Shown one piece after another: positions 8,106 through 26,497 of a stretch of DNA of 37,776 bases. This DNA is from Chloroflexota bacterium. Lineage in GTDB: Bacteria; Chloroflexota; Dehalococcoidia; GIF9; UBA5629. The notes below the pieces were generated by a model. The model did not search any database. It was not told where the DNA came from and was given only the letters and a program-made list of their open reading frames with translations. Made by a program: the position numbers and the translations under genes. Where the stretch lies: positions 1 to 37,776 of the forward strand of contig VGNY01000010.1 in NCBI GenBank assembly GCA_016865895.1, read 5' to 3'. The first letter of the stretch is position 1. The number at the start of each line of letters is the position of its first letter.

Positions 8106-9545
8106 ATGAAGATGGCGAAGTCAGACGATTTTGCTTTTCTTGATGCCACCGCTCAGGCTGAGCTGGTGAGAAAGAGAGAAGTTAAGCCATTAGAGCTAGT
8201 AGATGCGGCTATTAAGCGGATTGAGCGGCTAAATCCTACTCTTAATGCTGTGGTTACGCCCATGTATGAGCAGGCGCGTACCACAGCCGCAGGTAAGTTG
8301 TCCAAGAGGCCTTTCACCGGCGTACCATTTCTGATTAAAGATATTGTGGCTTCGTGTGCTGGGGTACGCATGACGCTAGGGTCAAGTTTTCTGCGGGATT
8401 TAGTACCGCCGAGGGACAGTGAACTTGTAGTGCGGTTGAAACGAGCCGGGTTGATTATATTAGGAAAGACTAACACGCCGGAGCTGGGGCTTTTGCCGAC
8501 GACCGAGCCTCGCTTGTTCGGGCCTACTCATAATCCCTGGAATACAAGCCGAACTGCTGGCGGCTCCAGTGGAGGCTCGGCAGCTGCGGTAGCTGCTGGC
8601 TTTGTTCCAATAGCTCATGCTAATGATGGTGGTGGCTCAATTCGGATTCCGGCTTCGTGTTGTGGACTCTTTGGCCTTAAGCCTACAAGAGCACGAAATC
8701 CTCTGGGACCTAGTTTTGGCGATATGATGGGTGGACTCGTAGTTGAACATGGTGTAACCCGCACGGTTCGAGATAGTGCTGCGTTGCTTGATGCCACTTC
8801 GGGTCCAGATTTGGGTGACCCCTATTGGGCTCCGCCGCCGAAGCGCCCGTTCTTGAAAGAGGTAGGTGCTGAACCTGGGCAACTCCGTATTGCTTTTACC
8901 ACTAAAGCTGCTACTGGTGTCCCAGTGCATGCTGATTGCGTCAACGCAGTTCGTGATGCTGCAGCGCTATGTGCTGACCTGAAGCATGAGGTAGTTGAGG
9001 CATCTCCGAAGGTTAATGGTGAGTTGGTGGGCCGTGCTTTCATGATTATCTGGTCGGTGGGCTGTGCCTGGACTATAGATGGTGCTGCTACGGCACTGGG
9101 TCGAAAAGCCGTCCGGGACGAGTTTGAACCGGCCACATGGGTGATGTATGAAATCGGGCAGCGACAGAGCGCACCAGCTTATCTGGGAGCTGTGACAATG
9201 CTCCAAGGCATAGCCCGTGATTTTGCCCGCTTTTTTGTTGATTATGATATCTTGCTTACTCCTACTCTTGCTGAACCACCGTTACCCCTCGGGTCGTTTG
9301 ATTCTCCACCGGAAGCCCCGCTACAAGCGCAACGCCGTGCTGCGGCTTTCTGTCCCTTCACACCGATTTGTAATATAACAGGGCAGCCAGCTATGTCGGT
9401 GCCACTTTTCTGGAATGAAAATGGTTTGCCGATAGGGACTCATTTTGTTGGCCGCTTTGGTGACGAGGCTACTCTTTTTCGTCTCGCAGCACAACTTGAG
9501 GCAGCACGGCCATGGGCGGACCGTCGCCCATCGATGTCAGTATGA
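8106..9545 (+). CDS. amidase signature family hydrolase
   Basis: A 479-residue cytoplasmic amidase. The catalytic triad is visible: Lys78 (in FLIKDI), the cis-Ser154 in AGGSSGGS, and the nucleophile Ser178 in [10 protein letters not shown]. The 24-residue spacing of the two serines is as in known members. Closest types are GatA-like amidases and fatty-acid-amide or acylamidases. There is no gatB or gatC neighbour, so a tRNA amidotransferase role is unlikely; the substrate is unknown. GGAAGGGGG precedes the ATG at 8106, and an alternative ATG lies at 8112. It lies 23 bp after the TIGR04076 gene. Confidence 0.92.
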
Positions 9546-9613
9546 AAATTCGTGTGTAGTTGCAACCCTGCAGGATTGATTAGTGAGACTAAAGCCAACT
9601 ATATGTTTTTGGC

Positions 9614-9641
9614 TTGACAAACCCCCATCATTCTGTATACG
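9614..9641 (+). promoter_or_regulatory. promoter candidate for the GAF histidine kinase
   Basis: TTGACA (9614-9619), a 16-bp spacer, then TATACG (9636-9641). It lies about 80 bp before the kinase ATG. Confidence 0.5.
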
Positions 9642-9721
9642 CTTACACCAATTTAGCTGTGGTTTTATCGCTGGTTGAACAAATGACTGCAGTGCTTGAG
9701 TTTAGGTGGTAATCTGGGTAT

Positions 9722-10918
9722 ATGGAAGAAGGTCAGCGCTACAAAGTACTTTACAAGATAGCTCATGAACTCAATTCCAATTTAGCACCTCAAGAGGTAC
9801 TGCGAACTATTGTGGAGACTATCTGCGATGCGGCTGGCGCAAAAGGTTGTTCACTTATGCTGTTGACTCCGGACCGAGAGCAGTTAATACATACTGTAGC
9901 GCATGGGTTAAGTGACTGGTATGTTCGAAAAGGGCCGGTGAGGGTAGATGCTGCTATGGCGCAGTCACTTGACGGCAAACCGGTGGCGATAATCGATGCT
10001 ACCACTGACAGCCGTGTTCAGTACAGGGAGCAGGCGAAAAAGGAAGGTATAGTGTCTATGCTCTCTATTCCTCTTATGCGGCGTGGTCAAGTTATTGGTA
10101 TTTTGCGCATCTATACCTCACAACCGCGCGATTTTACTGAACAGGAGATAGACTTTTTTGGCGCTCTGGCTAACCTGGGCGCTGTTGCTCTGGAGAGGGC
10201 GGAGTTGCTGGAGGAGGAGAAGAAGCGATTTCTTCACTTTGTCAGTATTGCTGCCCATGATTTGAAAGCGCCTCTTTCTGCAATACAGAGTTTTTTGGGA
10301 GTGATACTTGGTGGCTATGCCGGTGAGTTGAATGAAAAGCAAAAACACATGATGGAAAGAGCAAGTCAGAGGATTGCTGAGCTGCTTAACCTTATCAGCA
10401 ATCTGCTGGATATCCCTCGTATTGAGATGGGGCAGTTGGTTCAGGAGATGACGGAGGTATCGCTGGGCAAAATAATAGATAGTTTTGTTGAGGAAGGTTC
10501 TAGCCTGGCGCAGCAGAAGGGGATAAAATTCTCGGCTCAAGTACCTCAAGAGTTATCTTGTGTATATGGTTCTCCGACCAGGTTACAGCAAGTGATAACC
10601 AACCTTGTGAACAATGCCATCAACTATACTGACCAGGGTGAAGTTGTCCTGCGAGCTATAGAAACAGATAACGAGATTTTGGTTGAAGTGGCCGATACAG
10701 GGTGTGGGATTCCCTCCGATGACTTACCAAAGGTATTTCAGGACTTCTTCCGAGGTAGCAATGTCGGCCCTAAAGGTACTGGTTTGGGATTATCCATCTC
10801 CAGGAGGATTATAGAAGCTCACGGGGGCAAGATTTGGGCCGAGAGTCCCTGTGCTGAAACCGGTAAGGGAAGTAAGTTTTGCTTCACGCTCCCGAAAAAG
10901 GTAAAGGTGGCTATGTAG
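9722..10918 (+). CDS. soluble GAF-domain sensor histidine kinase
   Basis: A 398-residue protein without membrane segments. A GAF domain (about residues 10-160) senses an unknown intracellular ligand. The HisKA dimerisation domain carries the phospho-acceptor His179 in FVSIAAHDLKAPLSAIQ. The HATPase domain (about 280-395) has N-box NLVNNAINYT, DTGCGI and GTGLGLSI. Cytoplasmic location is inferred from the lack of a signal or span. Two receiver-only regulators follow (11019 and 11459) and are likely partners. The ribosome binding site is weak (AGGTGG about 12 bases upstream). Confidence 0.93.
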   Translation: MEEGQRYKVLYKIAHELNSNLAPQEVLRTIVETICDAAGAKGCSLMLLTPDREQLIHTVAHGLSDWYVRKGPVRVDAAMAQSLDGKPVAIIDATTDSRVQYREQAKKEGIVSMLSIPLMRRGQVIGILRIYTSQPRDFTEQEIDFFGALANLGAVALERAELLEEEKKRFLHFVSIAAHDLKAPLSAIQSFLGVILGGYAGELNEKQKHMMERASQRIAELLNLISNLLDIPRIEMGQLVQEMTEVSLGKIIDSFVEEGSSLAQQKGIKFSAQVPQELSCVYGSPTRLQQVITNLVNNAINYTDQGEVVLRAIETDNEILVEVADTGCGIPSDDLPKVFQDFFRGSNVGPKGTGLGLSISRRIIEAHGGKIWAESPCAETGKGSKFCFTLPKKVKVAM

Positions 10919-10989
10919 TTTTTGAGGTATATAGTTTGAGAGGTTTTGCGTTCGCACATATAGGAATATGGATTTATTGTGCTGTTATT

Positions 10990-10998
10990 TGATATAAT
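10990..10998 (+). promoter_or_regulatory. extended -10 element upstream of first receiver gene
   Basis: TGATATAAT (extended -10 TGnTATAAT) lies about 20 bp before the ATG at 11019, with no good -35. The resulting leader would be only about 14 nt and lacks a clear Shine-Dalgarno sequence. Confidence 0.45.
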
Positions 10999-11018
10999 TC
11001 GCCGAAGCTTACGAGCCG

Positions 11019-11423
11019 ATGATAGGTAAGAAGGTTCTAGTAGTTGATGATGACCCTGATATTTTAGATGCTGTGAGCATGATTCTGGAGGCGCAGGGCT
11101 ATGAGGTGGTCTTGGCTCATGATGGTGTGGAATGCTTAGATAAGCTCATTACAGAAAAGCCAGATATAGTGATACTCGACCTTCTGATGCCTAAGATGGA
11201 CGGCTTTGCTGTCTATAAGGAGCTCCAGTCTCCCAAGTGGGCCGAGTACCGTGATATCCCTATCCTCATCTTGAGTTCGGTGCGGGAGGAGGCTAGCCGC
11301 CGTCGCTACGAATTGGAAACAGGTCAAGAGCTTAAAGCGGACGAGTATATAGAAAAACCTATATTACCCGGTATCTTACTTGACTGTGTGGAAAAGCTGC
11401 TTAAACGAAGGCAGCGGCTCTAA
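11019..11423 (+). CDS. single-domain response regulator (receiver only)
   Basis: A 134-residue CheY-like receiver. The acidic pocket is at Asp10-12 (VVDDDPD), the phospho-acceptor is Asp54 in VILDLLMPKMDG, the switch residue is Ser in LILSS, and Lys113 is in YIEKP. There is no output domain. The segment between beta-4 and the KP motif is longer than usual (EEASRRRYELETGQELKADE). The next regulator shares this feature, which suggests an old duplication. The likely phosphodonor is the GAF kinase upstream. Confidence 0.93.
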   Translation: MIGKKVLVVDDDPDILDAVSMILEAQGYEVVLAHDGVECLDKLITEKPDIVILDLLMPKMDGFAVYKELQSPKWAEYRDIPILILSSVREEASRRRYELETGQELKADEYIEKPILPGILLDCVEKLLKRRQRL

Positions 11424-11458
11424 TCCGCAATGAAATGCTTTGAGGAGGTGACAAGATA

Positions 11459-11848
11459 ATGGAGCGCAAAAGTAAGGTTCTTCTTGTTGATGATGATAAG
11501 GACTTTGTGGAAGCAACTAAACTGGTCCTGGAGAGCAAGCCCTATGAAGTGATAGTTGCCTATGATGGGGATGAAGGATTGGCGAAAGCGAGGAAAGAAA
11601 AGCCTGATTTGATTATATTGGACATCATAATGCCTGTCAAGGATGGGTTTAGCGCTGCTGAACAGCTTAAAAAAGACCCTGAGCTTGGTAAAATCCCCGT
11701 CATAATGTTAACCAGCTTCTCCCAAAAGATGGGTGAGACTTCCCTGAGTGTCAGTCAGGGCCTTACACTCGATACCGAGGACTACGTGGACAAGCCAGTA
11801 GCTCCTGAAGAGCTGCTGAGGAGAGTGCAAAAGCTGCTTAAGAAGTAG
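11459..11848 (+). CDS. single-domain response regulator (receiver only)
   Basis: A 129-residue CheY-like receiver with Asp11-13 (LVDDDKD), phospho-acceptor Asp55 in IILDIIMPVKDG, Thr in MLTS, and a Lys in YVDKP. It has the same lengthened loop before DxYxxKP (KMGETSLSVSQGLTLDTED) as the regulator at 11019. A strong AGGAGGTGA site precedes the ATG. Its 3' end overlaps the convergent cyclic-nucleotide-binding gene by 11 bp. There is no output domain, so it probably acts by protein contact. Confidence 0.93.
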   Translation: MERKSKVLLVDDDKDFVEATKLVLESKPYEVIVAYDGDEGLAKARKEKPDLIILDIIMPVKDGFSAAEQLKKDPELGKIPVIMLTSFSQKMGETSLSVSQGLTLDTEDYVDKPVAPEELLRRVQKLLKK

Positions 11849-12347
11849 CTACTCGAGCCGTTTTTCTTTTCTCAGCGGCAGTTTTTTTGTCAGGGAGCTT
11901 AGCATGTATGTCTCTTAATCTTCTTGCGATAACTCTCACCAGGCTTTTCATCACCTCATAGCCAAGCACATGGTTTCGGTCCATCAGCTCGTTTAGCTCA
12001 GCGCCTGATACCGATATTACGGTGGAAGGCCTGACACAGATTGCCGACATATTCCGAGAGTGGGGTGGTATCAATGATGACCAGCCGAAAACATCTCCTT
12101 TGGTAACTGTATCGACCCGCACAAGTGTCAGCTTTTTTTCACCTTCTTGATGTAACGCAACCGCAAGGCTTACTGTCCCCTCCTCCACAATGTAGAAATC
12201 CTTTGCATCAGTATCTTCACGAAATATGACTTGTCCTGTTCTATAGTTGTGTCTGTGCCAGGAAGGTAGGCTCGCTATCTTTTCCAGGTCGCTGTCGCTA
12301 AGTCCTACGAATACTTCGCATCGTTTAAGTATTTGAACCAGGTTCAT
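11838..12347 (-). CDS. cyclic-nucleotide-binding domain protein without DNA-binding domain
   Basis: A 169-residue protein of the Crp/Fnr superfamily, consisting of only the cNMP-binding beta-roll. It opens with LKRCEVFVGLSDSDLEKIA, then IFREDTDAKDFYIVEEGTVSL, then GDVFGWSSLIPPHSRNMSAICV in the phosphate-binding cassette position. It ends after a helix and a Lys/Arg-rich tail (about 150-169), with no helix-turn-helix. It may therefore be a sensor that regulates a partner protein, not a transcription factor. It overlaps the 3' end of the receiver gene on the opposite strand. Confidence 0.88.
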   Translation of the reverse strand: MNLVQILKRCEVFVGLSDSDLEKIASLPSWHRHNYRTGQVIFREDTDAKDFYIVEEGTVSLAVALHQEGEKKLTLVRVDTVTKGDVFGWSSLIPPHSRNMSAICVRPSTVISVSGAELNELMDRNHVLGYEVMKSLVRVIARRLRDIHAKLPDKKTAAEKRKTARVATS

Positions 12348-12726: not shown

Positions 12727-15381
12727 TTGGAGGCAATTACTATCACGCTCAACGGGCGGGAGATAAGTGGCCAGCCCGGGATGACCATCTTGGACTTGGC
12801 CCAGGAGGCAGGCGTACAAATCCCCACTCTTTGCCATGACCCTTATCTTGACCCTGTTGGTGCCTGCCGCATTTGTATAGTGGAAGATGAGCGGTCGGGT
12901 GTCTTGATGGCTTCTTGCGTTACTCCTATAGCACCAGGGATGGTAATTAGCACTCAATCGCCACGGGTGCTGGAGCGCCGGAGGACCATAGTCAAACTCA
13001 TGCTGGCTAGCCATCCCGATTCCTGTCTTGTGTGCGATAAAGGTAACCGTTGCCAATTGCGCAAAGTTGCCGCAGACATGGGCGTTGGGCTGGTAGAATT
13101 CCAGAGGATTCCCCAACTATCAACTATCGAGGAGGTTAATCCCTTCATTGAGAGAGATTTGAGTAAGTGTATCCTTTGTGCCAAATGTATCCGAGCGTGT
13201 CAGGAGCTAGTTGGTGAAGGTGCTATTGATTATCTTGGCCGCGGGTTTATCTCCAAGCCGGCAACGTTTGGTAACCTGCCGTTAGAAAAGTCCGAGTGCA
13301 CATTTTGTGGAACATGTGTAGCAATATGTCCCACAGGTGCCATCATGGAGAAAGAGAAAACTTATAGGGGGACGACTACGACAACTGTCCGTACAACCTG
13401 TCCGTATTGTGGCTGCGGCTGTGGCATTTATTTGGAGGTAAAAGACAACCATTTGGTACGAATCAGACCTGATGGGGATAATCTGCTGAATCATGGTACC
13501 CTTTGTGTCAGGGGGAGCTACGGCTGCGATTTTGTGCATAGCCCAGAGAGACTAACCAGCCCAATGATTAAGGTGAATGGCAACTTTGAGGCAGTGACAT
13601 GGGATGAAGCCTTGAGCTCGGTGGCTGATGCATTTAAGCGAATAAAAGAGGCTCATGGCTCTAACAGCCTGGCTGTCTTCGGTTCGTCCAAATGCACCAA
13701 CGAAGAGAATTACTTGCTACAAAGGTTTGCCCGATGTGTGCTAGGTACCAATAACATTGACAACGGCGGCCGGCTATACAGTACTGCCAGTGATATAGGG
13801 CTTTGGGAGACTATCGGTTATCACGGTACCACGAGCTCTCTTGATAGCCTGGAACGGTCTCAGGTGATATTAGTCATTGGAGCTAATCCGTCCTCCTCAG
13901 CGCCGCTGGTGGAGTATGCTATCAAGCGTGCTGTTAAACGTAAAGGCGCCAAGTTGTTGTTGATAGACCCCGCGGGAACGAAGCTTGCCTCGTGGGCGCA
14001 TCTCTGGATTAGACCTAAAGTCGGTACGGATGTGGTTCTTTTAAACGGTATGGCCAAGGTAATTATTGATGAAGAGTTGTTCAATAAAGATTACGTGTCT
14101 AAGAAAACAGACAACTTTGAGACATTGGATAAGGCTTTACAGGCATATACCATGGACTATGTGGAGCAAATTACAGGAGTTAAAGTGAAGGAGATACGCC
14201 ATGTCGCTCGGCTCTTCGCCGAGGCTGACTGTGCTTCCATAGTCTATGGTAACGGTATCACCCAATATGTTAATGGGGTAAGTAGTGTGGTTGCTTTGGC
14301 GAACTTGGCGATGTTGACTGGATGCATTGGGGATAGTGGGGGTGGCATCTACGTGCTGCAAAGGGAAAATAATGGGCAAGGGGCCTGCGACATGGGCACC
14401 CTCCCCGATTTTCTCCCAGGCTATCAGAGTCTGAAAGACGCTCAAGCCAGGGAGAGATTCGAAGCCCGATGGGGATGTCACTTACCTACTGATGCCGGGT
14501 TATCAGCCCTGGAGATGGTTATTGGGGCAAAAGAAGGCAAAATAAAGGGAATGTATATTGTGGGTGAAAATCCAGTGGTCAGTTTCCCCAATTCGAACCT
14601 TGTGAGGCAGGCTCTGGAATCATTGGATTTCCTGGTGGTGCAGGATATGTTTCTTACTGAGACGGCGAAACTGGCGAAGGTGGTCTTGCCAGCTGCTAGC
14701 TTTGCTGAAAAAGAAGGAACGTTTACCAATTTTGATGGCACAGTGCGGAAGTTACGAAAAGCCTTGGAGCCATGTGGAGGTAGCTTGCCAGACTGGGAAA
14801 TAACACTTCGGCTGGTACAGAAGATGAACTATCCGATGCTGTATTTTTCTCCTCAGGAAATGATGGACGAAATTGCAGAATTGGTTCCTTTGTATCAGGG
14901 CGTGAATTATGCTGATTTGGAGAAGAAAGGGCGGCATTCTCCTAGGCGTCAATTTTCCGGCACACTCGGGCATTTTTCTCCAGTCGAGTATATTTCACGG
15001 CCTGATAGTTTGGATAATGGGTATCCTTACACCCTGTTGACTGGAACTATCTTGTATCAATTCGGCACTGGTTCCAGGAGCTCGAGATCTTCACGCTTGA
15101 AAAAATTCTCACCGGAAGCTTTTGTTGAAATCAGCAAGGCTGACGCTAAAGGTCTCAAAGTCAAAGACGGCGACAAAGTCAGGATAGTATCGTCTGTTGG
15201 CGAGTTGGTGACTTCGGTTAAAATCACTGACATGCTTAATAAAGGGATGATTTTTATGCCTCTCTCATTTCCAGAGAGTTCGGTCAACGGACTTTTTGAC
15301 ATTGTATTAGCTCCCAGAACGAAATCCCCAGCTTTAAAAACATGTTCGGTAAGGCTGGAAAGGATTGGAAGCTGTGCCTGA
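12727..15381 (+). CDS. NuoG/FdhA-like iron-sulfur molybdopterin-fold subunit lacking the Cys/Sec ligand
   Basis: An 884-residue protein with the layout of NAD-linked formate dehydrogenase alpha subunits. A 2Fe-2S ferredoxin domain (C36, C47, C50, C64) is followed by a NuoG His/Cys cluster (near 97-113). Two 4Fe-4S clusters (CILCAKCIRAC, CTFCGTCVAICP) come next. The bis-MGD fold has its own 4Fe-4S site (CPYCGCGCG ... CVRG) and a C-terminal dinucleotide-binding domain. Where formate dehydrogenases have R-[LV]-[CU]-H, this protein has R349-L-Y351-S352, so the Mo/W ligand and its His are missing. There is no in-frame TGA. It may be an electron-transfer scaffold like NuoG. The TTG start has GAGG 5 bases upstream. 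It overlaps nuoE. Confidence 0.9.
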   Translation: MEAITITLNGREISGQPGMTILDLAQEAGVQIPTLCHDPYLDPVGACRICIVEDERSGVLMASCVTPIAPGMVISTQSPRVLERRRTIVKLMLASHPDSCLVCDKGNRCQLRKVAADMGVGLVEFQRIPQLSTIEEVNPFIERDLSKCILCAKCIRACQELVGEGAIDYLGRGFISKPATFGNLPLEKSECTFCGTCVAICPTGAIMEKEKTYRGTTTTTVRTTCPYCGCGCGIYLEVKDNHLVRIRPDGDNLLNHGTLCVRGSYGCDFVHSPERLTSPMIKVNGNFEAVTWDEALSSVADAFKRIKEAHGSNSLAVFGSSKCTNEENYLLQRFARCVLGTNNIDNGGRLYSTASDIGLWETIGYHGTTSSLDSLERSQVILVIGANPSSSAPLVEYAIKRAVKRKGAKLLLIDPAGTKLASWAHLWIRPKVGTDVVLLNGMAKVIIDEELFNKDYVSKKTDNFETLDKALQAYTMDYVEQITGVKVKEIRHVARLFAEADCASIVYGNGITQYVNGVSSVVALANLAMLTGCIGDSGGGIYVLQRENNGQGACDMGTLPDFLPGYQSLKDAQARERFEARWGCHLPTDAGLSALEMVIGAKEGKIKGMYIVGENPVVSFPNSNLVRQALESLDFLVVQDMFLTETAKLAKVVLPAASFAEKEGTFTNFDGTVRKLRKALEPCGGSLPDWEITLRLVQKMNYPMLYFSPQEMMDEIAELVPLYQGVNYADLEKKGRHSPRRQFSGTLGHFSPVEYISRPDSLDNGYPYTLLTGTILYQFGTGSRSSRSSRLKKFSPEAFVEISKADAKGLKVKDGDKVRIVSSVGELVTSVKITDMLNKGMIFMPLSFPESSVNGLFDIVLAPRTKSPALKTCSVRLERIGSCA

Positions 15382-15862
15382 GACTAAAACAAAACCCGGG
15401 CTTAATTTGGCGCGGATAGATGAGCTTATCACTGAAGGTCGGGAGCAGAAGTGGGCTTTGATTCCACTCCTTCAGAAAATACAGGAAGAGTTTGGATATA
15501 TCCCTCCTGAGGTGGTGCAGCCTATCGCTAGGGCTTTGGGCTTATTTCCAGCACAGGTACAAGGAGTGATTACCTTCTATGCACAGTTGTATACCAAACC
15601 ACAAGGGAGGAAAGTTGTCAGGGTATGTCGGGGGACAGCGTGCCACGTACGAGGTGGGAAAACGATATTGAAATTGGTGAAACAGCATCTGGGTCTTGAA
15701 GAAGGTGAGACTACTCCTGATTATGAATATACATTGGAGACGGTTGCCTGCATAGGGGTTTGTGCTCTGGCCCCCAACATAGTCATTGGTACGACGACCT
15801 ACGGGCACATGAATCCCAAAAAAGTAGCCCAATTATTTGGTGAGGGAAAGGGTGCGGAATAG
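15374..15862 (+). CDS. NuoE-like [2Fe-2S] subunit (24 kDa type)
   Basis: A 162-residue thioredoxin-like ferredoxin subunit. The N-terminal helical part contains LLQKIQEEFGYIPPEVV (about 32-48). The [2Fe-2S] ligands are C85, C90 (CRGTAC) and C126, C130 (CIGVC), the family pattern. It passes electrons from the flavin subunit to other clusters. GTG 15374 is preferred over TTG 15365 because AAAGGA ends 9 bases before it. Either start overlaps the upstream stop, implying coupled translation. The next gene starts 1 bp after its stop. The partners are the NuoG-like and NuoF-GltD proteins. Confidence 0.92.
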   Translation: MPETKTKPGLNLARIDELITEGREQKWALIPLLQKIQEEFGYIPPEVVQPIARALGLFPAQVQGVITFYAQLYTKPQGRKVVRVCRGTACHVRGGKTILKLVKQHLGLEEGETTPDYEYTLETVACIGVCALAPNIVIGTTTYGHMNPKKVAQLFGEGKGAE

Positions 15863-15863
15863 T

Positions 15864-18800
15864 ATGTCAGAGCAGAAGGTCGTTTTTGTTTGCCAAGGCA
15901 CGGGCTGTGTTTCAGGCGGCTCAGATGCTGTTTACGATGCACTCAAATCAGAGGTAGAGCGGCAAAGATTGGCGGGTGTTGAAATAGACTTCACTGGTTG
16001 TCATGGCTTTTGTGAGCAGGGTCCCAATGTAGTCATCGAACCTGAGGGTATTTTCTACACCCACGTAGAGCCGGGGGATACGCCCGAGATTGTTAGCTCC
16101 CACCTGAAAGGTGGCAAGCCGGTGGAACGCCTCTTCTATCGTGACCCTGTTACAGGTCAAAGTATACCGTATTATTCAGAAATAAACTTCTATAAAAAGC
16201 AGCAACGTGTCATCCTGCGTAATTGTGGTCACATTAATCCGGAGAAGATTGACCACTATATTGCTAGTGGAGGTTATAGAGCGCTCAGGAAGGTTATCCT
16301 TATCACACCTGACGAAGTCATCGAAGAAATCAAGAAGTCTGGGTTGCGTGGTCGGGGTGGGGCTGGTTTCCCTACCGGGCGAAAGTGGGAGTTTTGCCGG
16401 AACTCACCTGGCGGCACGAAGTACGTCATTTGTAATGCTGACGAAGGTGACCCTGGTGCCTTCATGGACCGCTCTATCTTGGAAGCTGACCCTCATTCTG
16501 TTATCGAGGGTCTAACGATTGCTGGATATGCCATAGGTGCCAGGGAGGGGTACATTTATGTGCGTGCTGAATATCCGTTGGCGGTGAAGCGATTTCGTAT
16601 TGCTCTAGAGCAAGCTAAGAAAAAGGGTTTTCTCGGTGACAATATTCTTGGCTCGCACTTCTCTTTCATAATTCATGTCAAGGAAGGTGCTGGTGCCTTT
16701 GTTTGTGGTGAGGAGACAGCACTGCTTGCTTCTATTGAGAGCAAAAGAGGCATGCCTCGCCCTCGTCCACCCTTCCCAGCACAGTCTGGTTTGGATGGGA
16801 AACCCAGCAATATCAACAACGTGAAAACGCTGGCTTCAGTCCCTGTCATTATTGATAAAGGTGCTGAGTGGTTCGCCAGCTTAGGCACTGAGAAAAGCAA
16901 GGGGACTGCTGTTTTTGCTCTTACTGGTAAGATTGCCAATAGCGGCTTGGTGGAGGTGCCGATGGGTACTCCGCTTGCTACTGTTATCTTCGATATCGGT
17001 GGTGGTATCCCCCGTGGTAAGAGGTTCAAAGCAGTACAGACGGGTGGCCCCTCAGGCGGGTGTATCTCAACCCAGTTCATAGATACCACGGTGGACTATG
17101 ATTCTCTGGCTCAGTTAGGCTCCATTATGGGGTCTGGTGGCATGGTGGTTATGGATGAGGCCACCTGTATGGTTGAGGTGGCTCGCTATTTCTTGAGTTT
17201 TACTCAAGATGAGTCCTGTGGGAAATGCGTCCCTTGCCGTTTGGGAACAAAGCAGATGCTAGAAATTTTGACCCGAATCACTCAAGGGAAAGGGCGCGAT
17301 GCAGATATGGATACTCTGCTTAATATAGCCAGGACAGTCAAGGAGTGTTCACTGTGCGGCCTGGGTCAGACCTGTCCCAACCCTGTGCTGACAACAATTA
17401 ACTATTTCAGGGATGAGTATGAAGCTCACATAAAAGAAAAAAAGTGCCCCGCCGCAGTGTGTGACTCCTTGATGGTATCGCCGTGCCAGCATACTTGCCC
17501 GGTTGGAATTAACATTCCTAAATATGTTGCCCATATCGCTGCCGGGGAGTATCTAGAGTCTATTGAAACAATCAGGGACCGGAATCCGTTTCCAGCGATA
17601 TGCGGGCGCATCTGTCATCATCCCTGTGAGGGCAGGTGTCGTAGGGGTGAGCTTGATGAGCCTGTAGCCATCAGGTCGCTGAAACGGTTTGCTGCCGATT
17701 GGTACTTTGACAATTTGGCTGAATTACCTCCACCCACGCCTTTCCCTAGAACTAAATCTCAGAAAGCGGCAGTGGTAGGTGCTGGTCCTACCGGACTTAG
17801 TTGTGCTTATTACTTAGCCCAGATGGGTTACGGAGTTACCGTTTTTGAGGCTTTGCCTGTTGGTGGGGGCATGCTCTCTGTGGCTATACCTGAATTTCGA
17901 TTGCCTCGTAAAGTTATTCAACAGGAGATTGAATATATCGCCAAACGTGGAGTTGACATAAGATATGACATGCCAATCGGGGTGAGCTACACTGTGGACG
18001 ACCTTCTTAAGAAAGATGGTTACTCGGCCGTGTTTATCGCTGCTGGAGCTCAGAGAAGCCAGCGGATAGGTATACCTGGTGAACTGGAGGATGTCGAGGG
18101 TTTCCATTATGGGCTGAGGTTCTTGAGGGATGTCAAAGTCGGAAAACAGGTTCGAGTCGGGCATAGAGTGGCGGTTATTGGGGGTGGGAATGTGGCTCTT
18201 GATGCTGCGCGCACAGCTCTCCGTCTTGGTGCTGATGAAGTCAGCATCTTCTATCGCCGGTCGCGGGAGGAAATGCCGGTGACCGAGGTGGAATATGATG
18301 AGACAGTAGCTGAGGGCATTAGCGTTAATTTTCTGGTCAGTCCTACGCGCATAGTCAGTGACAATTGGAAGGTTACCGGCTTGCAGTGTAGTCGTATGCA
18401 GTTGGGCGAGATGGATGTCAGTGGGCGCCGTAGACCGGTGCCGATTCCGGGCTCAGAATTTTTCGCTGAAGCTGATACCGTAATTGCTGCGGTTGGCCAA
18501 GCTCCTGACCTATCGTTTTTACCGCCTGACAGCGCTCTCGAGCGGACACGCTGGGAGACACTGGCTGTTGACAATAATACCTTGGCTACTAATGTCCCCG
18601 GTGTCTTCGCTGGCGGTGACTTTGTCACCGGCCCAGGCATGGTCATAGATGCTATTGCCGCTGGTAGGAGAGGGGCTTTAGCTATAGATAAATACCTTAA
18701 GGCGGATACCTCAAGGGTAGAGATGTATGACCTGAAGACTGAGGTCATTGTGGAAGCTGCCACTAAGGTAGAGGAAGAAACATGGGAAGCGCAGCCGCGG

Positions 18801-18926
18801 CTGGAAGTGCCGACACTTCCCACCGAAAAAAGGAAACACAGCTTTGATGAGATAGAGCTTAGCTTCTCAGAGGAGAAGGCGAAGCATGAGGCTAAGCGGT
18901 GCTTGAGGTGCGACCTGGAGCGATGA
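15864..18926 (+). CDS. NuoF-GltD fusion: NADH-binding flavin subunit joined to a glutamate-synthase-beta-like oxidoreductase
   Basis: A 1020-residue fusion. First comes a thioredoxin-like [2Fe-2S] domain (C10, C15, C46, C50). The NuoF part follows: FMN/NADH site GRGGAGFPTGRKW (163-175), NADEGDPGAF (191-200), and the 4Fe-4S ligands C452, C455, C458, C498. A GltD-type unit follows: an eight-Cys domain binding two 4Fe-4S clusters (C528 to C592), the FAD motif GAGPTG (639-644), and a second dinucleotide fold VIGGGNVALDAA. It ends CLRCD. It thus has two flavins and two pyridine-nucleotide sites, as HydB-like and NfnB-like enzymes have separately. ATG 15864 (GAGGGAAAGGG upstream) is preferred over TTG 15837. 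Confidence 0.92.
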   Translation: MSEQKVVFVCQGTGCVSGGSDAVYDALKSEVERQRLAGVEIDFTGCHGFCEQGPNVVIEPEGIFYTHVEPGDTPEIVSSHLKGGKPVERLFYRDPVTGQSIPYYSEINFYKKQQRVILRNCGHINPEKIDHYIASGGYRALRKVILITPDEVIEEIKKSGLRGRGGAGFPTGRKWEFCRNSPGGTKYVICNADEGDPGAFMDRSILEADPHSVIEGLTIAGYAIGAREGYIYVRAEYPLAVKRFRIALEQAKKKGFLGDNILGSHFSFIIHVKEGAGAFVCGEETALLASIESKRGMPRPRPPFPAQSGLDGKPSNINNVKTLASVPVIIDKGAEWFASLGTEKSKGTAVFALTGKIANSGLVEVPMGTPLATVIFDIGGGIPRGKRFKAVQTGGPSGGCISTQFIDTTVDYDSLAQLGSIMGSGGMVVMDEATCMVEVARYFLSFTQDESCGKCVPCRLGTKQMLEILTRITQGKGRDADMDTLLNIARTVKECSLCGLGQTCPNPVLTTINYFRDEYEAHIKEKKCPAAVCDSLMVSPCQHTCPVGINIPKYVAHIAAGEYLESIETIRDRNPFPAICGRICHHPCEGRCRRGELDEPVAIRSLKRFAADWYFDNLAELPPPTPFPRTKSQKAAVVGAGPTGLSCAYYLAQMGYGVTVFEALPVGGGMLSVAIPEFRLPRKVIQQEIEYIAKRGVDIRYDMPIGVSYTVDDLLKKDGYSAVFIAAGAQRSQRIGIPGELEDVEGFHYGLRFLRDVKVGKQVRVGHRVAVIGGGNVALDAARTALRLGADEVSIFYRRSREEMPVTEVEYDETVAEGISVNFLVSPTRIVSDNWKVTGLQCSRMQLGEMDVSGRRRPVPIPGSEFFAEADTVIAAVGQAPDLSFLPPDSALERTRWETLAVDNNTLATNVPGVFAGGDFVTGPGMVIDAIAAGRRGALAIDKYLKADTSRVEMYDLKTEVIVEAATKVEEETWEAQPRLEVPTLPTEKRKHSFDEIELSFSEEKAKHEAKRCLRCDLER

Positions 18927-18979
18927 TGACTGGGATTGCTCGGAGGAATGCTCTATTGGTTAATTAGGAGGGTGTGACG

Positions 18980-19624
18980 ATGAAATCTATCACTAAACAG
19001 AAGTCTTTTGATGAAATCAGAGAGCAATTGGAAGGATTAGACAGGGTTTACATCATTGGCTGTGGTACTTGTGCCACCATGACAAAAACTGGGGGTATAG
19101 AGGAAGTTCAGGATATGAAGGACCGTCTTCAGGAACTGGGTAAAATTGTTACCGGCTCGACGGTTATCCCTACCGCTTGTGATGAGATGACGGAAGTTGC
19201 TCTCAAAGAGAACAATGGAGCCATCAGTAGTTCGAACTGTATTCTGGTCATGTCCTGTGCCTTGGGGGTGCACAAAGTCAGTTGCTATATTGATAGATTT
19301 GTCATTCCGGCGCTGGATACGCTATTCATCGGCTTGGAGGATGAGCCAGGCAACTTTCATGAAGTCTGTGCCCAGTGCGGTCAGTGTGTTTTAGGTCAAA
19401 CTGCTGGTATTTGTCCGCTAACGGCTTGCCATAAGGGATTGCTAAACGGACCATGCGGCGGTACTAATAGAGGCAAGTGCGAGGTAGACATAACAAAGGA
19501 TTGTGCCTGGACACTCATATATCAGCGACTGGAAGCACAGGGCAGGCTTGATATGATGCGCAAGTATCAGCCGCCCAAGAACTTCCAGGCGGCACCCAGG
19601 CCGCGAACGATCAAAATCGCATGA
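18980..19624 (+). CDS. metV: MetV-like zinc/iron-sulfur partner of methylenetetrahydrofolate reductase
   Basis: A 214-residue protein of the methylene-tetrahydrofolate reductase C-terminal (MetV) family. It has 13 cysteines. The dense motif C130-x2-C133-x2-C136 ... C145 ... C150 ... C159 ... C167, with GPCGGTNRGKCEV, is the family hallmark. In acetogens MetV binds MetF and helps bring electrons to its flavin. ATG 18980 is chosen because TAGGAGGG lies 7 bases upstream; a GTG at 18974 is possible. It lies 54 bp after the NuoF-GltD gene and 16 bp before metF, so all five genes are probably one operon. Confidence 0.9.
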   Translation: MKSITKQKSFDEIREQLEGLDRVYIIGCGTCATMTKTGGIEEVQDMKDRLQELGKIVTGSTVIPTACDEMTEVALKENNGAISSSNCILVMSCALGVHKVSCYIDRFVIPALDTLFIGLEDEPGNFHEVCAQCGQCVLGQTAGICPLTACHKGLLNGPCGGTNRGKCEVDITKDCAWTLIYQRLEAQGRLDMMRKYQPPKNFQAAPRPRTIKIA

Positions 19625-19640
19625 GGGGAAGGAGATGCTT

Positions 19641-20525
19641 ATGGTAACACGCTTTAAAGAAGCTCTAAACTCCGGCAAGTTTGTAATAACCAGTGAGATT
19701 GGGCCACCTAAAGGTACCAACATTGAGAAGATGCACCATCACATTGACCTTCTCAAAGATAAAATTGTTGCCATGAATGTCACTGACCATCAAAGCTCGG
19801 TGATGCGTTTTCCTTCTATCGGTGGTTGTCTGGCGATTAAAGAGCATGGTGGTGAGCCGATACTGCAGATGACCTGCCGCGACCGAAACCGTCTTGCTCT
19901 TCAAGCTGAACTGCTTTTTGCCTATACTAGAGGTGTAAGGAATGTCCTCTGCCTTACCGGAGACGCTGTTCCAGTTGGTGACCATAAAGAGGCCAAGGGC
20001 GTCTTTGACCTGGATTCAGTTCAACTGTTAAAGGCTATCCGCCAGATGGAATCAGGTAAAGACCTTGGTGGCAATGACCTCGATGGGGCTGTTGAATTCT
20101 GCGCTGGGGCTATAGTCACACCAGAAGCTAACCCGATAGAACCTCAATTGCTCAAGTTTGAAAAGAAGGTCGAAGCTGGAGCTGAATTCTTTCAGACTCA
20201 AGCTATCTACGACCTGGATAACTTTGGCAAATTCATGAAGTATGCTCGGCAGTTCCCCGTCAAAATTCTGGCCGGGATAGTCTTGCTTACCTCGGCAAGG
20301 ATGGCGAAATATATGACTGAGAATGTACCCGGCATCTTTGTGCCTCAGAACCTGATTGATGAGCTAGCCGCTGCCCCCAAAGGTGAAGCACTAAATAAGG
20401 GTATTGAGATCGCTGGCAGAATGATTGCCGCTCTGAAAAAGGATTCCATATGTGACGGAGTCCATGTTATGGCCATCGGCAGGGAAGAATTAGTTCCGGA
20501 CATACTAGCCGCCGCTGGTCTTTGA
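19641..20525 (+). CDS. metF: methylenetetrahydrofolate reductase
   Basis: A 294-residue flavin-binding TIM-barrel enzyme that reduces 5,10-methylene-THF to 5-methyl-THF in the methyl branch of the Wood-Ljungdahl pathway. Family features are FVITSEIGPPKGTN near the start (catalytic Glu), NVTDHQSS, LQMTCRDRNR, NVLCLTGD, and FFQTQAIYD. It is cytoplasmic. ATG 19641 is preferred over ATG 19635 because AAGGAG (19629-19634) is then 6 bases away instead of touching. No fused C-terminal domain is present; that role is taken by the MetV protein upstream. Confidence 0.95.
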   Translation: MVTRFKEALNSGKFVITSEIGPPKGTNIEKMHHHIDLLKDKIVAMNVTDHQSSVMRFPSIGGCLAIKEHGGEPILQMTCRDRNRLALQAELLFAYTRGVRNVLCLTGDAVPVGDHKEAKGVFDLDSVQLLKAIRQMESGKDLGGNDLDGAVEFCAGAIVTPEANPIEPQLLKFEKKVEAGAEFFQTQAIYDLDNFGKFMKYARQFPVKILAGIVLLTSARMAKYMTENVPGIFVPQNLIDELAAAPKGEALNKGIEIAGRMIAALKKDSICDGVHVMAIGREELVPDILAAAGL

Positions 20526-22567: not shown

Positions 22568-23365
22568 ATGATAGATACCAAACTGGTAGATAACATTAGG
22601 TCTTATGGTACTTGCAAAGGTTCGGGGGAAGAAAGGCGAAAGATTCTGGTGGATGACATTGGGTTCAGAATAGGCGAGAAGGCGGAGTATGTCCTTATCA
22701 CCGGCTGTTTTCAGCCTGAGGGGATGCCACACGTGATGCGGGCACTGAAGAATCTACTCGACCGTTTCCAGGTGGACTGTACGCTGCTGCAAAAGGAGTA
22801 TTGCTGCGGCTGGATGCCACTGGGGCAGCCTGCGGTGATGGCCAAGAACGAGGATGACATCGCCAAGACGAAAGAGTTGGCCAGAGAGTTCATTTTGGAG
22901 AACTTCAAACAAGCTGAGGCGTTAGGGGCGAAGTCAATCGTCTTGTTCTGTAGCGCTTGTGAGCCTAATTATACCAACTGTCTGGGAGCTACTAAGCTGG
23001 AGGTCATCTCTTACAGTGGGCTCCTCGACCGCTATTTCACCGGTGGTAAGTTGAATTTGGAGCTGGACTATTATGCCGGGTGCTACAGATTTCGACGGCG
23101 GATAACCACCGAGCCAGTGGATGTTTCACCTGCGGTGCGAGTGCTCAACAAGATACAATGGCTCAAGGTGAACTATCTGGATACTAACCTGTGCTGCTAC
23201 ATACCGTCGCATCAGGAGCAGCTCATTGGTAGCCTGACAACTAAGACATTAGTCAACATCTGTTCCGGTTGCTACCACAGTCTCAGAGGTAAGCTACAGG
23301 AGAAGCCTGATATTCAAGTAAAGATGTTGCCCGAGGTGGTGTGGGAGTCCGTTCGAGACAGGTAG
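22568..23365 (+). CDS. HdrB-like CCG-domain protein
   Basis: A 265-residue protein with two CCG-type cysteine modules. The first is C47, C79-C80-G, C128-x2-C131; the second is C172, C209-C210, C232-x2-C235. In heterodisulfide reductase HdrB such modules bind noncubane 4Fe-4S clusters that reduce disulfides. HdrA and HdrC are not adjacent. A role as thiol/disulfide or electron-transfer subunit for a neighbouring enzyme is possible but unproven. No signal peptide is seen. The site TTAGGGGGG is 6 bases before the ATG. A cupin and the DmsAB-like pair follow on the same strand. Confidence 0.85.
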   Translation: MIDTKLVDNIRSYGTCKGSGEERRKILVDDIGFRIGEKAEYVLITGCFQPEGMPHVMRALKNLLDRFQVDCTLLQKEYCCGWMPLGQPAVMAKNEDDIAKTKELAREFILENFKQAEALGAKSIVLFCSACEPNYTNCLGATKLEVISYSGLLDRYFTGGKLNLELDYYAGCYRFRRRITTEPVDVSPAVRVLNKIQWLKVNYLDTNLCCYIPSHQEQLIGSLTTKTLVNICSGCYHSLRGKLQEKPDIQVKMLPEVVWESVRDR

Positions 23366-23733: not shown

Positions 23734-25914
23734 ATGGATAAAACAAAGATAATTACCACCAGTTGCAGTCACGATTGCGGTGGGCGATGTATGCTCAAGG
23801 TGCATGTGCATGATGGCAAAATCGTCAGGATGGAGACTGATGATGGCGAGGAGCCTCAGTTCAGAGCCTGTCTCAGAGGAAGAGCCTATCGGCAGCGGGT
23901 CTATTCATCTGACCGACTGAGATTTCCGTTGAAAAGAGTAGGCCCACGAGGTGAAGGCCAGTTCGAAAAGATTTCCTGGGATGAAGCTCTGGATGCCGTA
24001 GCTAGAGAGCTAATCAGAGTCAGGGATACTTATGGCAATGCTAGCATCTTACTTCTCGGTGGGTCAGGAAGCCAGGCTGCATTGCATAGTGCTGGGGCAG
24101 TAGAGCGTCTATTGGCTAAATTTGACGGCTATACCCGGACCTGGGGTACCCCCTCTTTTGAAGGGGCACTGTTCGCCTCCATGGCAACTTATGGCACCAT
24201 GATGACGGGCAATGCGAGGGAAGACCTGCTCCATTCTCAACTCATTATCATGTGGGGCTGGAATCCCGCCGTAACCATCTGGGATACCAACACGGCTTTC
24301 ACCTTAGTTAAGGCCAAGGAAAAAGGTATCAAGATAATTTCTATTGACCCGCGTCTCACCGAGTCTACAGCGGTATTTGCTACTGAGTGGATTCCTATCA
24401 GGCCGGGCACTGATACGGCTATGTTTGTTGCTATGGCCTACGTGATAATCAAACGCGGATTCCAAAACCAGCAGTTTCTTGATAAATATACCGTTGGCTT
24501 TGATAAGTTCCGGGATTATGTTATGGGGGTAGAGGATGGCATATCCAAGACGCCTGAATGGGCAGAGAAGATAACCGGAGTGCCACGGGCTACAATCGAA
24601 CGGCTAGCAATAGAATATGCAACCTCTAAACCGGCGGCGCTGATACCGGGCTGGGGGCCAGCTCGTGGTGCCAGAGGTGAGCAATTCAGTCGAGCAGCTT
24701 GTACCGTTGCTGCTATAACTGGCAATATAGGCGTAGAAGGTGGCTATGCTGGTGGATTCATGCGAGCTTTCCATAGTCGGCAGATGGGTATGCCTCGCGG
24801 GGCGAGAAATCCGGTGGAAGAAGGAACACCGCCGCGGCCGAATAGCTTGTATAGGTTGCGTGGCGCTGCCAAGCCTACCAGCGCCCGTATCCACAGCGAG
24901 AAGATATATGATGCTATACTCAGGGGCAAAGCTGGTGGCTATCCCTGTGACCCCAGGCTGGCTTATATTGTAGCTTCGAATTTTCTTTGCTCCCATCCCA
25001 ACACCAATAGGGGTATAGAGGCTTTTAAAAGCCTTGAGTTTATCGTGGTACATGAGCAGCGGATGACACCTACTGCGAAGTTTGCTGATATACTGTTGCC
25101 AGTGAACACCTTTATGGAGCGAGAGGACGTAATTTCCCCCTGGCTCGGGTCACCTTACTATCTTTATATGGACAAGGCTATAGACTCAATGTACGAGTCT
25201 AAATCCGACCGTGATATCTGTGATGAGCTGGCACTCCGCCTTGGTATTACTGATTATAGAGAGGGTCGTACTGATGGGGAGTGGCTGAAGATAATCGCCG
25301 AGCGTACTGGTGACATTCCCGATTTTGAAGATTTCAAGAAGAGGGGGGTGGTTAAGCTCAAGGTGGATAAGCTGTTTGTGGCGTTCAAAGAACAAATCGA
25401 AGACCCGGTGGGTCACCCCTTTCCTACTCTTTCCGGTAAGATTGAAATCTACTGTGAGCATCTGGCAGAAATGGATAATCCGTCAATTCCGCCCGTTGCC
25501 AAATACCTGCAGGCGCCTGAAGGTTACGGTGACGCCTTGTCACAAAAATACCCTTTACAACTTCTGACTACCCACCACAAGCCGGCAACCCATACCACGA
25601 TGGAGAAAATACCGTGGCTTGATGAGGTAGAGCCGAGGCGTGTCTGGATTAATACCAAAGACGCAGAGACGCGTGGCATCTGTGATGGTGACGGAGTGTT
25701 GATTTTTAATGACCGAGGTAAGGTGTTGATGCGAGCTGATGTCACCGAGAGAATCATGCCAGGAGTGGTCAATATCGGCCACGGTGGTTGGTTCGATGTT
25801 GATGAGCTTGGAGTAGACCGGGGTGGTTGTTCTAACACTTTGACATCCAGTGAGCATTCTCCTGGAGGGGCCTGGTCCACGAATACCGTCCTGGTTGAAG
25901 TAAGAAGGATTTAG
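23734..25914 (+). CDS. DMSO-reductase-family molybdopterin oxidoreductase (DmsA-like), no Tat signal
   Basis: A 726-residue catalytic subunit with bis-MGD fold. The N-terminal 4Fe-4S site is C11, C15, C19 and C46 (CSHDCGGRC ... RACLRG). Ser141 in WGTPSFEGALF aligns with the Ser that coordinates Mo in DMSO reductase, so it differs from the NuoG/FdhA-like protein. The C-terminal domain (about 600-726) closes the cofactor. There is no twin-arginine leader, implying a cytoplasmic enzyme. Possible substrates are S- or N-oxides or other oxo-acceptors; sequence alone cannot decide. The ATG lies 4 bp after the cupin stop, with no clear ribosome binding site. The DmsB-like subunit follows. Confidence 0.92.
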   Translation: MDKTKIITTSCSHDCGGRCMLKVHVHDGKIVRMETDDGEEPQFRACLRGRAYRQRVYSSDRLRFPLKRVGPRGEGQFEKISWDEALDAVARELIRVRDTYGNASILLLGGSGSQAALHSAGAVERLLAKFDGYTRTWGTPSFEGALFASMATYGTMMTGNAREDLLHSQLIIMWGWNPAVTIWDTNTAFTLVKAKEKGIKIISIDPRLTESTAVFATEWIPIRPGTDTAMFVAMAYVIIKRGFQNQQFLDKYTVGFDKFRDYVMGVEDGISKTPEWAEKITGVPRATIERLAIEYATSKPAALIPGWGPARGARGEQFSRAACTVAAITGNIGVEGGYAGGFMRAFHSRQMGMPRGARNPVEEGTPPRPNSLYRLRGAAKPTSARIHSEKIYDAILRGKAGGYPCDPRLAYIVASNFLCSHPNTNRGIEAFKSLEFIVVHEQRMTPTAKFADILLPVNTFMEREDVISPWLGSPYYLYMDKAIDSMYESKSDRDICDELALRLGITDYREGRTDGEWLKIIAERTGDIPDFEDFKKRGVVKLKVDKLFVAFKEQIEDPVGHPFPTLSGKIEIYCEHLAEMDNPSIPPVAKYLQAPEGYGDALSQKYPLQLLTTHHKPATHTTMEKIPWLDEVEPRRVWINTKDAETRGICDGDGVLIFNDRGKVLMRADVTERIMPGVVNIGHGGWFDVDELGVDRGGCSNTLTSSEHSPGGAWSTNTVLVEVRRI

Positions 25915-25924
25915 TGGCTTAAGT

Positions 25925-26497
25925 ATGCAGTTAGGGTTCTACATTGACCAGTCGAGATGCACGGGTTGTTACACTTGTACTGTGGCGTGCAAGGACTGGC
26001 ATGATATTCCAGCGGGCCCGGTGAACTGGCGCTGGGTGGTGACAGTGGAGGATGGGAAATACCCGAAGGTATTTGTTGCCTTCCTTTCCCTTTCCTGCTT
26101 GCATTGCGCTGAGCCTAGCTGTATGTCAGTTTGCCCGGTGGATGCCATCAGCAAGCGGCAGGAAGATGGCATTGTTGTGGTAGACCAGGAAGCCTGTCTT
26201 GGTAAGGAAGCATGTGGCCAGTGTAAAGAGGCTTGTCCCTACGTGGCGCCGCAGTTCAGTGCCGATGATGGAGCCAAAATACAGATGTGCCACCTGTGTG
26301 TGGATAGATGGCAGGAGGGCAAGAAGCCTGTTTGCGTCGAAGCCTGCCCAATGTGGGCTTTAGATGCTGGGCCGCTTGAGGAACTGGAAGCCAAGTATGG
26401 AAAAGTGAAAGAGGTTGAGGGGTTTAAGTTTGTTGAGAAGAATAGGCCCTCTGTGGTGTTGAAAGCAAGAGAGCCTGAATTATTAGGATACCCATAA
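25925..26497 (+). CDS. DmsB-like four-cluster 4Fe-4S electron-transfer subunit
   Basis: A 190-residue ferredoxin-like subunit. The clusters are set by C12-x2-C15-x2-C18-x3-C22, CLHCAEPSCMSVCP, CGQCKEACP and CHLCVDRW ... CVEACP, the DmsB/PhsB pattern. It carries electrons to the DmsA-like subunit 10 bp upstream. There is no signal peptide, consistent with the partner. A membrane anchor (DmsC/NrfD) is absent downstream; the next gene is a C_GCAxxG_C_C protein. The electron donor may therefore be a soluble carrier, perhaps the HdrB-like protein upstream; this is inference. Confidence 0.92.
   Translation: MQLGFYIDQSRCTGCYTCTVACKDWHDIPAGPVNWRWVVTVEDGKYPKVFVAFLSLSCLHCAEPSCMSVCPVDAISKRQEDGIVVVDQEACLGKEACGQCKEACPYVAPQFSADDGAKIQMCHLCVDRWQEGKKPVCVEACPMWALDAGPLEELEAKYGKVKEVEGFKFVEKNRPSVVLKAREPELLGYP

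What the first reader, a model, noticed from the sequence alone, without database searches (positions are those of the whole stretch)
13750..13800. FdhA-like subunit has lost the Cys/Sec-His active site
Formate dehydrogenases have R-x-[CU]-H at the metal ligand. Here the sequence reads NNIDNGGRLYSTASDIGL, with Tyr351-Ser352 in place of Cys/Sec-His. The reading frame is intact and there is no in-frame TGA, so an annotation as formate dehydrogenase is probably wrong. The nearby Ser could still coordinate Mo, or the fold may hold no metal, as in many NuoG proteins.
Basis: seen in the sequence. Interest (0 to 1): 0.72.

Follow-up and report, generated by a model that had tools for sequence, protein, structure and literature searches.

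The report
Dead formate dehydrogenase wired to MTHFR
This gene encodes a formate-dehydrogenase look-alike that has lost its whole catalytic site but kept its iron-sulfur clusters, and in dozens of bacteria from three phyla it sits in the same five-gene operon as methylenetetrahydrofolate reductase, so it is most likely a retired enzyme now used as an electron wire in the Wood-Ljungdahl carbon-fixation pathway.

Summary
The frame 12727-15381 (884 aa) is open, has no in-frame TGA, and reads Tyr351-Ser352 where formate dehydrogenases (FDHs) have Cys/Sec-His. It is a lineage trait. None of 71 relatives from Chloroflexota and Bacillota (one filed as Thermodesulfobacteriota) has [Cys/Sec]-His; nearly all have also lost the catalytic Arg (Gln in 61) and other residues invariant in active FDHs. 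13 operons from the phylum of that Thermodesulfobacteriota genome have lost them too. The FDH fold and the Fe-S ligands remain. The ligand loop is variable and has deletions, while the gene is under purifying selection. Ser352 is not conserved, so Ser-ligated Mo is unlikely.

Synteny gives the function. The gene leads an operon FdhL-NuoE-NuoF(-GltD)-MetV-MetF; wherever an unbroken contig was long enough, MetV (42/42) and MetF (39/39) follow. This is the uncharacterised "X-type" methylenetetrahydrofolate reductase noted in 2021. Best reading: FdhL is a NuoG-like wire carrying NAD(P)H electrons to MetV-MetF. The sister clade keeps an intact FDH site, and one member has the same operon order (FdhA-NuoE-NuoF-MetV). 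The genome's real FDH is a separate selenocysteine enzyme. Complex formation and electron donor are inferred. New variant of a known kind.

The parts
12727..15381 (+). fdhL: NuoG-type N-terminal Fe-S region plus full-length, catalytically dead FdhA domain (884 aa, TTG start)
   Evidence: fold model pLDDT 89, pTM 0.91, TM 0.94-0.96 to FDH alpha subunits
12832..13329 (+). N-terminal Fe-S ligands (Cys36/47/50/64 [2Fe-2S]; His96/Cys100/103/109; Cys148/151/154 + 201; Cys191/194/197 + 158)
   Evidence: all retained in the relatives except C158 (Asp in 23 of 69); Pfam Fer2_4, NADH-G_4Fe-4S_3, Fer4_Nqo3
13399..13506 (+). FDH-type [4Fe-4S] ligands Cys225/228/232/260, kept
   Evidence: 70/70, 70/70, 70/70 and 71/71 conserved
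13750..13803 (+). former metal-ligand loop NNIDNGGRLYSTASDIGL; Tyr351-Ser352 (13777-13782) replace Cys/Sec-His
   Evidence: loop entropy 1.48 bits in FdhL against 0.68 in FDHs
14353..14379 (+). former catalytic-Arg loop: V-L-Q545-R-E-N-N instead of P-L-R587-G-Q-N-N
   Evidence: Gln in 61 of about 70 FdhL, Arg in all 49 active FDHs of the set
15365..15862 (+). NuoE-like [2Fe-2S] subunit, overlapping the end of fdhL
   Evidence: NF005722 above cut-off; next gene in 57/57 testable loci (one broken locus excluded)
15837..18926 (+). NuoF-GltD fusion: HydB/StnB-like NADH/FMN module (about residues 1-540) fused to a GltD-like FAD/NADPH module (about 546-1029)
   Evidence: NuoF 48/48, GltD 43/45
18974..19624 (+). 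MetV
   Evidence: PF12225; 42/42 testable loci
19635..20525 (+). MetF, methylenetetrahydrofolate reductase
   Evidence: PF02219; 39/39 testable loci
9722..12347 (.). flanking histidine kinase, two response regulators (+) and Crp-like gene (-); probable regulation, not part of the enzyme
   Evidence: same order upstream of fdhL in the closest relatives (L042, L043, L074, L126)

Best explanation
FdhL is the large linking subunit of an X-type methylenetetrahydrofolate reductase complex (FdhL + NuoE + NuoF-GltD + MetV + MetF). It descends from a functional formate dehydrogenase alpha subunit, lost the Cys/Sec-His-Arg site and probably the bis-MGD cofactor, and kept its Fe-S chain. Proposed electron path: NADH at the NuoF FMN and/or NADPH at the GltD FAD -> Fe-S clusters of NuoE/NuoF/FdhL -> MetV [4Fe-4S] -> MetF flavin -> methylene-THF (or the reverse when methyl groups are oxidised). 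Shown: loss of catalytic residues, retention of Fe-S ligands, purifying selection, conserved operon, relationship to an active sister clade. Inferred: absence of Mo/W, physical complex, identity of the electron donors, and whether electrons are bifurcated.
For: Catalytic loss across the family: in about 71 FdhL the equivalents of H387, R587, H427, R713, R829 and H901, 100% conserved in 49 active FDHs, are replaced, R587 with one Arg exception. Fe-S ligands conserved. dN/dS 0.09-0.21 over the whole gene. Ligand loop more variable than in FDHs while the N-terminal Fe-S region is twice as conserved. Operon FdhL-NuoE-NuoF-(GltD)-MetV-MetF wherever an unbroken contig is long enough, also in the phylum of the Thermodesulfobacteriota locus L113, where the site is equally lost in 13 of 13. 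One branch separates all dead from active sequences. Sister clade with intact C-H-R; one member (L199) has FdhA-NuoE-NuoF-MetV in order, another (L132) fdhA overlapping metV. The own genome carries a separate Sec-FDH and the same NuoE/NuoF-GltD/NuoG module on a [NiFe] hydrogenase, showing that the module is plugged onto different catalytic partners. The CdhC family of CODH/ACS is present. Precedent: StnC, inactive FdhF-like domain, no formate activity (PMC7483475, PMC10482914).
Against: No biochemistry. Synteny does not prove a complex: the Sporomusa Stn genes lie downstream of metVF, yet the purified enzyme was a StnABC transhydrogenase (PMC7483475). In StnC the FDH-domain clusters are off the main electron path, so this domain could be structural only. 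Apo or modified pterin binding cannot be excluded from sequence.
Confidence: 0.66

Rival explanations
1. FdhL-NuoE-NuoF-GltD is a free-standing Stn-like NADH/NADPH/ferredoxin transhydrogenase that is only co-transcribed with metVF.
For: Same modules as StnABC; in Sporomusa ovata stnABC lies next to metVF and purifies without it (PMC7483475).
Against: Adjacency to metV-metF is fixed across the operons that could be tested in three phyla. Two operons (L073, L105) keep FdhL-NuoE-NuoF-MetV-MetF but have no GltD, so they could not use NADPH there. The StnB-type C-terminal 2x[4Fe-4S] domain is absent here, replaced by GltD.
Confidence: 0.22
2. FdhL still binds a Mo/W-pterin cofactor with Tyr351, Ser352 or no protein ligand and catalyses a different reaction.
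For: Tyr351 is common (58 of 62); the complete C-terminal pterin-binding domain and FDH fold are kept.
Against: Position 351 is also Cys, His, Thr, Asp or Glu, and 352 varies; the loop has deletions; R587, H427, R713, R829 and H901 are lost together; in the divergent phylum the loop is degenerate.
Confidence: 0.08
3. Pseudogene, sequencing or assembly error.
For: The genome is a fragmented assembly (306 contigs, 8.9% contamination).
Against: Same substitution in dozens of independent assemblies, open frames, dN/dS 0.09-0.21.
Confidence: 0.01

Closest known systems
X-type (group III) methylenetetrahydrofolate reductase, NuoEFG homologues upstream of metFV (Microbiol Spectr 2021, PMC8515935)
   Same: Gene order and subunits; reported from Desulfobacterales and Chloroflexi; proposed, not tested, to bifurcate electrons.
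   Different: That paper calls the large subunit a NuoG homologue. Here it is shown to be a full-length dead FdhA, with a sister clade that is still catalytically intact, and NuoF mostly carries a fused GltD.
StnC of the Sporomusa-type transhydrogenase (8OH5/8OH9; PMC10482914)
   Same: Inactive FdhF-like domain with Fe-S clusters retained, NuoE/NuoF partners, encoded beside metVF, annotated as formate dehydrogenase.
   Different: In StnC the GltD domain is fused to the NuoG-like chain; here it is fused to NuoF. FdhL is far closer to true FDHs (583 bits to 6tg9 against 304 to 8oh5_C) and keeps the whole C-terminal domain.
NAD-dependent formate dehydrogenase FdsA/FdhA (6tg9, 7vw6)
   Same: Same domain order and fold over the full length (TM 0.94).
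   Different: Metal ligand, His, Arg and further invariant residues all lost.
HydA of the bifurcating [NiFe] hydrogenase HydABCSL (7t2r/7t30) and NuoG of complex I
   Same: NuoG-like wire subunits between NuoEF and a catalytic module.
   Different: Lower similarity (249 bits to 7t2r_A); 7t2r_A is shorter and matches only to residue 553; different catalytic partner.

Membership tests
Metal-dependent formate dehydrogenase alpha subunit | Overall FdhA sequence (TIGR01591) | tested here: met
   710 bits, cut-off 666
Metal-dependent formate dehydrogenase alpha subunit | Cys/Sec metal ligand followed by catalytic His | tested here: not met
   Tyr351-Ser352; none of 71 relatives has [CU]-H
Metal-dependent formate dehydrogenase alpha subunit | Catalytic Arg (R587 R. 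capsulatus) | tested here: not met
   Gln545
Metal-dependent formate dehydrogenase alpha subunit | Mo/W bound, formate oxidation | not testable with these tools
   needs purified protein
X-type MTHFR complex | NuoE/F/G-like genes directly upstream of metV-metF | tested here: met
   window 12727-20525; 39/39 testable loci
X-type MTHFR complex | Subunits form one complex that reduces methylene-THF | not testable with these tools
   never purified as far as the searched literature shows
Stn transhydrogenase | StnC = GltD fused to NuoG-like chain | tested here: not met
   GltD is fused to NuoF
Stn transhydrogenase | StnB C-terminal 2x[4Fe-4S] domain | tested here: not met
   NuoF runs straight into GltD; absent in L073/L105
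NuoG (complex I) | TIGR01973 cut-off | tested here: not met
   351 bits, cut-off 470
NuoG-like wire subunit (function) | Fe-S ligands intact, no catalytic Mo site | tested here: met
   (residues only; metal content not tested)

The most novel reading that the evidence does not exclude
A line of formate dehydrogenases joined to MetVF became an electron hub: an ancestral FdhA-NuoE-NuoF-MetVF enzyme fed formate electrons straight into methylene-THF reduction (its active form survives in the L132/L199 clade), and in the FdhL lineage the formate port was shut and mostly replaced by an NADPH port (GltD), giving an NAD(P)H-dependent, possibly electron-bifurcating MTHFR.
Probability: 0.28. Interest if true: 0.75.

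Novelty: new variant of a known kind. Interest (0 to 1): 0.5.

Why it matters
The electron donor and energy coupling of methylenetetrahydrofolate reductase is an open question in acetogen bioenergetics. This identifies the large subunit of the least-studied MTHFR type as a decayed formate dehydrogenase, corrects an FDH annotation that inflates predictions of formate metabolism in Dehalococcoidia, Bacillota and Desulfobacterota genomes, and gives a natural active/inactive sister pair in the same operon type with which to test how a catalytic subunit becomes an electron wire.

Tried and rejected
A shallow fold (19 orthologues) gave a poor model (pLDDT 66) and was replaced by a 46-sequence model. 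A phylum-wide DNA pattern for the motif found only 3 of 400 genomes: too strict for synonymous and amino-acid variation, so it is not a measure of prevalence. One regional call failed on length and one on handle type. Considered and rejected: hidden Cys/Sec elsewhere in the loop (alignment shows none), recoded TGA (none in frame), pseudogene (dN/dS, open frames). Literature searches for an earlier description of the dead FdhA in X-type MTHFR found none, but only open-licence papers are held.

Full report
OBSERVATION. The + frame 12727-15381 encodes 884 aa without an in-frame stop. At 13750 it reads NNIDNGGRLYSTASDIGL, with Tyr351-Ser352 at 13777-13782. The best solved relative is Rhodobacter capsulatus formate dehydrogenase alpha (6tg9, E=1e-173), and the alignment puts Y351 on the metal ligand C386, S352 on H387 and Q545 on R587. 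The roles of H387 and R587 in the active site are documented (PMC10385643, PMC13397495).

A LINEAGE TRAIT. Relatives in the same family and order (52-79% identity) lack the ligand and the His. None of 71 aligned FdhL rows has [Cys/Sec]-His; position 351 is usually Tyr but also Cys, His, Thr, Asp or Glu, and 352 is Ser, Asn, Gly, Tyr or others. Against 49 active FDHs (R. capsulatus FdsA included), residues equivalent to H387, R587, G588, H427, R713, R829 and H901 are 100% conserved in the active set and almost wholly replaced in FdhL; one FdhL row keeps Arg at 587. Only H387 and R587 are documented catalytic residues; that the others belong to the cofactor pocket is inferred from their position in the pterin-binding domains. 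81 of 175 conserved positions of the FDH domain are still kept.

STILL A FUNCTIONAL PROTEIN. The cysteines for one [2Fe-2S] and four [4Fe-4S] clusters are conserved throughout, apart from C158 (Asp in 23 of 69). dN/dS for close pairs is 0.09-0.21. Conservation is inverted relative to FDHs: the ligand loop has entropy 1.48 bits (0.68 in FDHs), with deletions in three rows, while the N-terminal Fe-S region has 0.80 (1.58 in FDHs). That is what is expected if catalysis was dropped and electron transfer kept. The FdhL set is less diverse than the FDH set, which makes the higher loop entropy the more telling of the two. The model built on 46 sequences (pLDDT 89, pTM 0.91) matches FDH alpha subunits at TM 0.94-0.96; since active FDHs were in the alignment this confirms the fold, not the cofactor.

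OPERON. fdhL overlaps a NuoE gene, followed by a NuoF-GltD fusion, metV and metF. Leaving out one locus where fdhL itself is broken (L078/L125), every locus with enough downstream sequence has NuoE (57/57), NuoF (48/48), MetV (42/42) and MetF (39/39); GltD is present in 43/45, the exceptions being L073 and L105. In genomes drawn from the phylum of L113's genome, the MetV most like this one lies in the same operon, and the FdhL there, only 40-47% identical, has also lost the site in 13 of 13. This is the X-type MTHFR that PMC8515935 noticed and left untested.

EVOLUTION. All dead sequences lie on one side of a branch with SH-aLRT 100, compatible with one loss if the root lies among active enzymes; the root was not inferred and these were quick trees. 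The nearest active relatives (L132, L153-L156 and copies) keep C-H-R. L199 has the order FdhA-NuoE-NuoF-MetV with metF nearby on the other strand. L132 has fdhA overlapping metV, then metF, without nuoEF. The branch joining them with FdhL against other FDHs is supported at 99. In L199 NuoF ends in a two-[4Fe-4S] domain, in L105/L073 in nothing, in most FdhL operons in GltD. So the operon association with MetV probably preceded loss of the formate site.

GENOME CONTEXT. The same genome has a selenocysteine FDH on contig C76 with NuoE/NuoF and Nfn-like genes, a [NiFe] hydrogenase on C7 with a NuoE/NuoF-GltD/NuoG set of the same build, and CdhC of CODH/ACS. FdhL is therefore not needed for formate oxidation.

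MECHANISM. Most likely NADH (NuoF) and/or NADPH (GltD) electrons pass through FdhL to MetV and MetF. I hold the catalytic loss to be about 95% certain and assembly with MetVF about 65-70%; bifurcation is open. The main rival is a separate Stn-like transhydrogenase encoded next door, since Stn lies next to metVF in Sporomusa and purifies alone.

NOVELTY. Dead FDH-like wire subunits (StnC, NuoG, HydA) and the X-type operon are known. What appears new, within the open-licence literature searched, is that the large subunit of X-type MTHFR is a decayed full-length FdhA in three phyla, with an intact-site sister clade in the same operon type. New variant of a known kind, interest 0.5.

Noticed in passing
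L132:1390-5660 (G050:C74); L199:4994-12257 (G581:C29): Intact Cys-type FdhA directly joined to metV (and metF) without nuoEF, or FdhA-NuoE-NuoF-MetV: candidate formate-coupled methylene-THF reductase, nearest active relative of FdhL.
   Followed up: partly
L124:15-7640 (G000:C7): [NiFe] hydrogenase genes next to NuoG-like, NuoF-GltD fusion and NuoE: same module build as the FdhL operon on another catalytic partner.
   Followed up: partly
L121:377-11593 (G000:C76): Selenocysteine FDH with two NuoF-like genes, NuoE and a NuoG/GltD fusion, plus ferredoxin-NADP-reductase-like and GltD genes: probable bifurcating FDH of this genome.
   Followed up: partly
L196 (G563:C128:5000-16979), match on - strand 9058-11697: A second, independent loss of the FDH site (NNIDSSARLRD, KGENN) in another FdhA lineage.
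   Followed up: no
L139 and L141: FdhAs that keep Cys-His but have Leu or Ser in place of the catalytic Arg.
   Followed up: no
FdhL residue 158 (window 13198-13200): This ferredoxin-motif cysteine is Asp in 23 of 69 FdhL sequences, possibly a changed cluster.
   Followed up: no
L238, L239, L244-L246, L248, L249, L251, L254, L255: A second divergent MetF-like gene (28-30% identity) lies directly upstream of FdhL in operons from the phylum of L113's genome.
   Followed up: no
L078 and L125 (CP070642.1, G025): fdhL is broken at residue 608 and its 3' part lies elsewhere on the same chromosome; likely an assembly misjoin or a rearrangement.
   Followed up: no
window 23734-26497: DmsAB-like molybdoenzyme pair (TIGR02166 and TIGR02951 below cut-off), downstream of a HdrB/CCG-like protein at 22568-23365.
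   Followed up: no
L102 (VGNW01000019.1): The one FdhL with Cys at the ligand position, but Ser follows and the catalytic Arg is lost.
   Followed up: no
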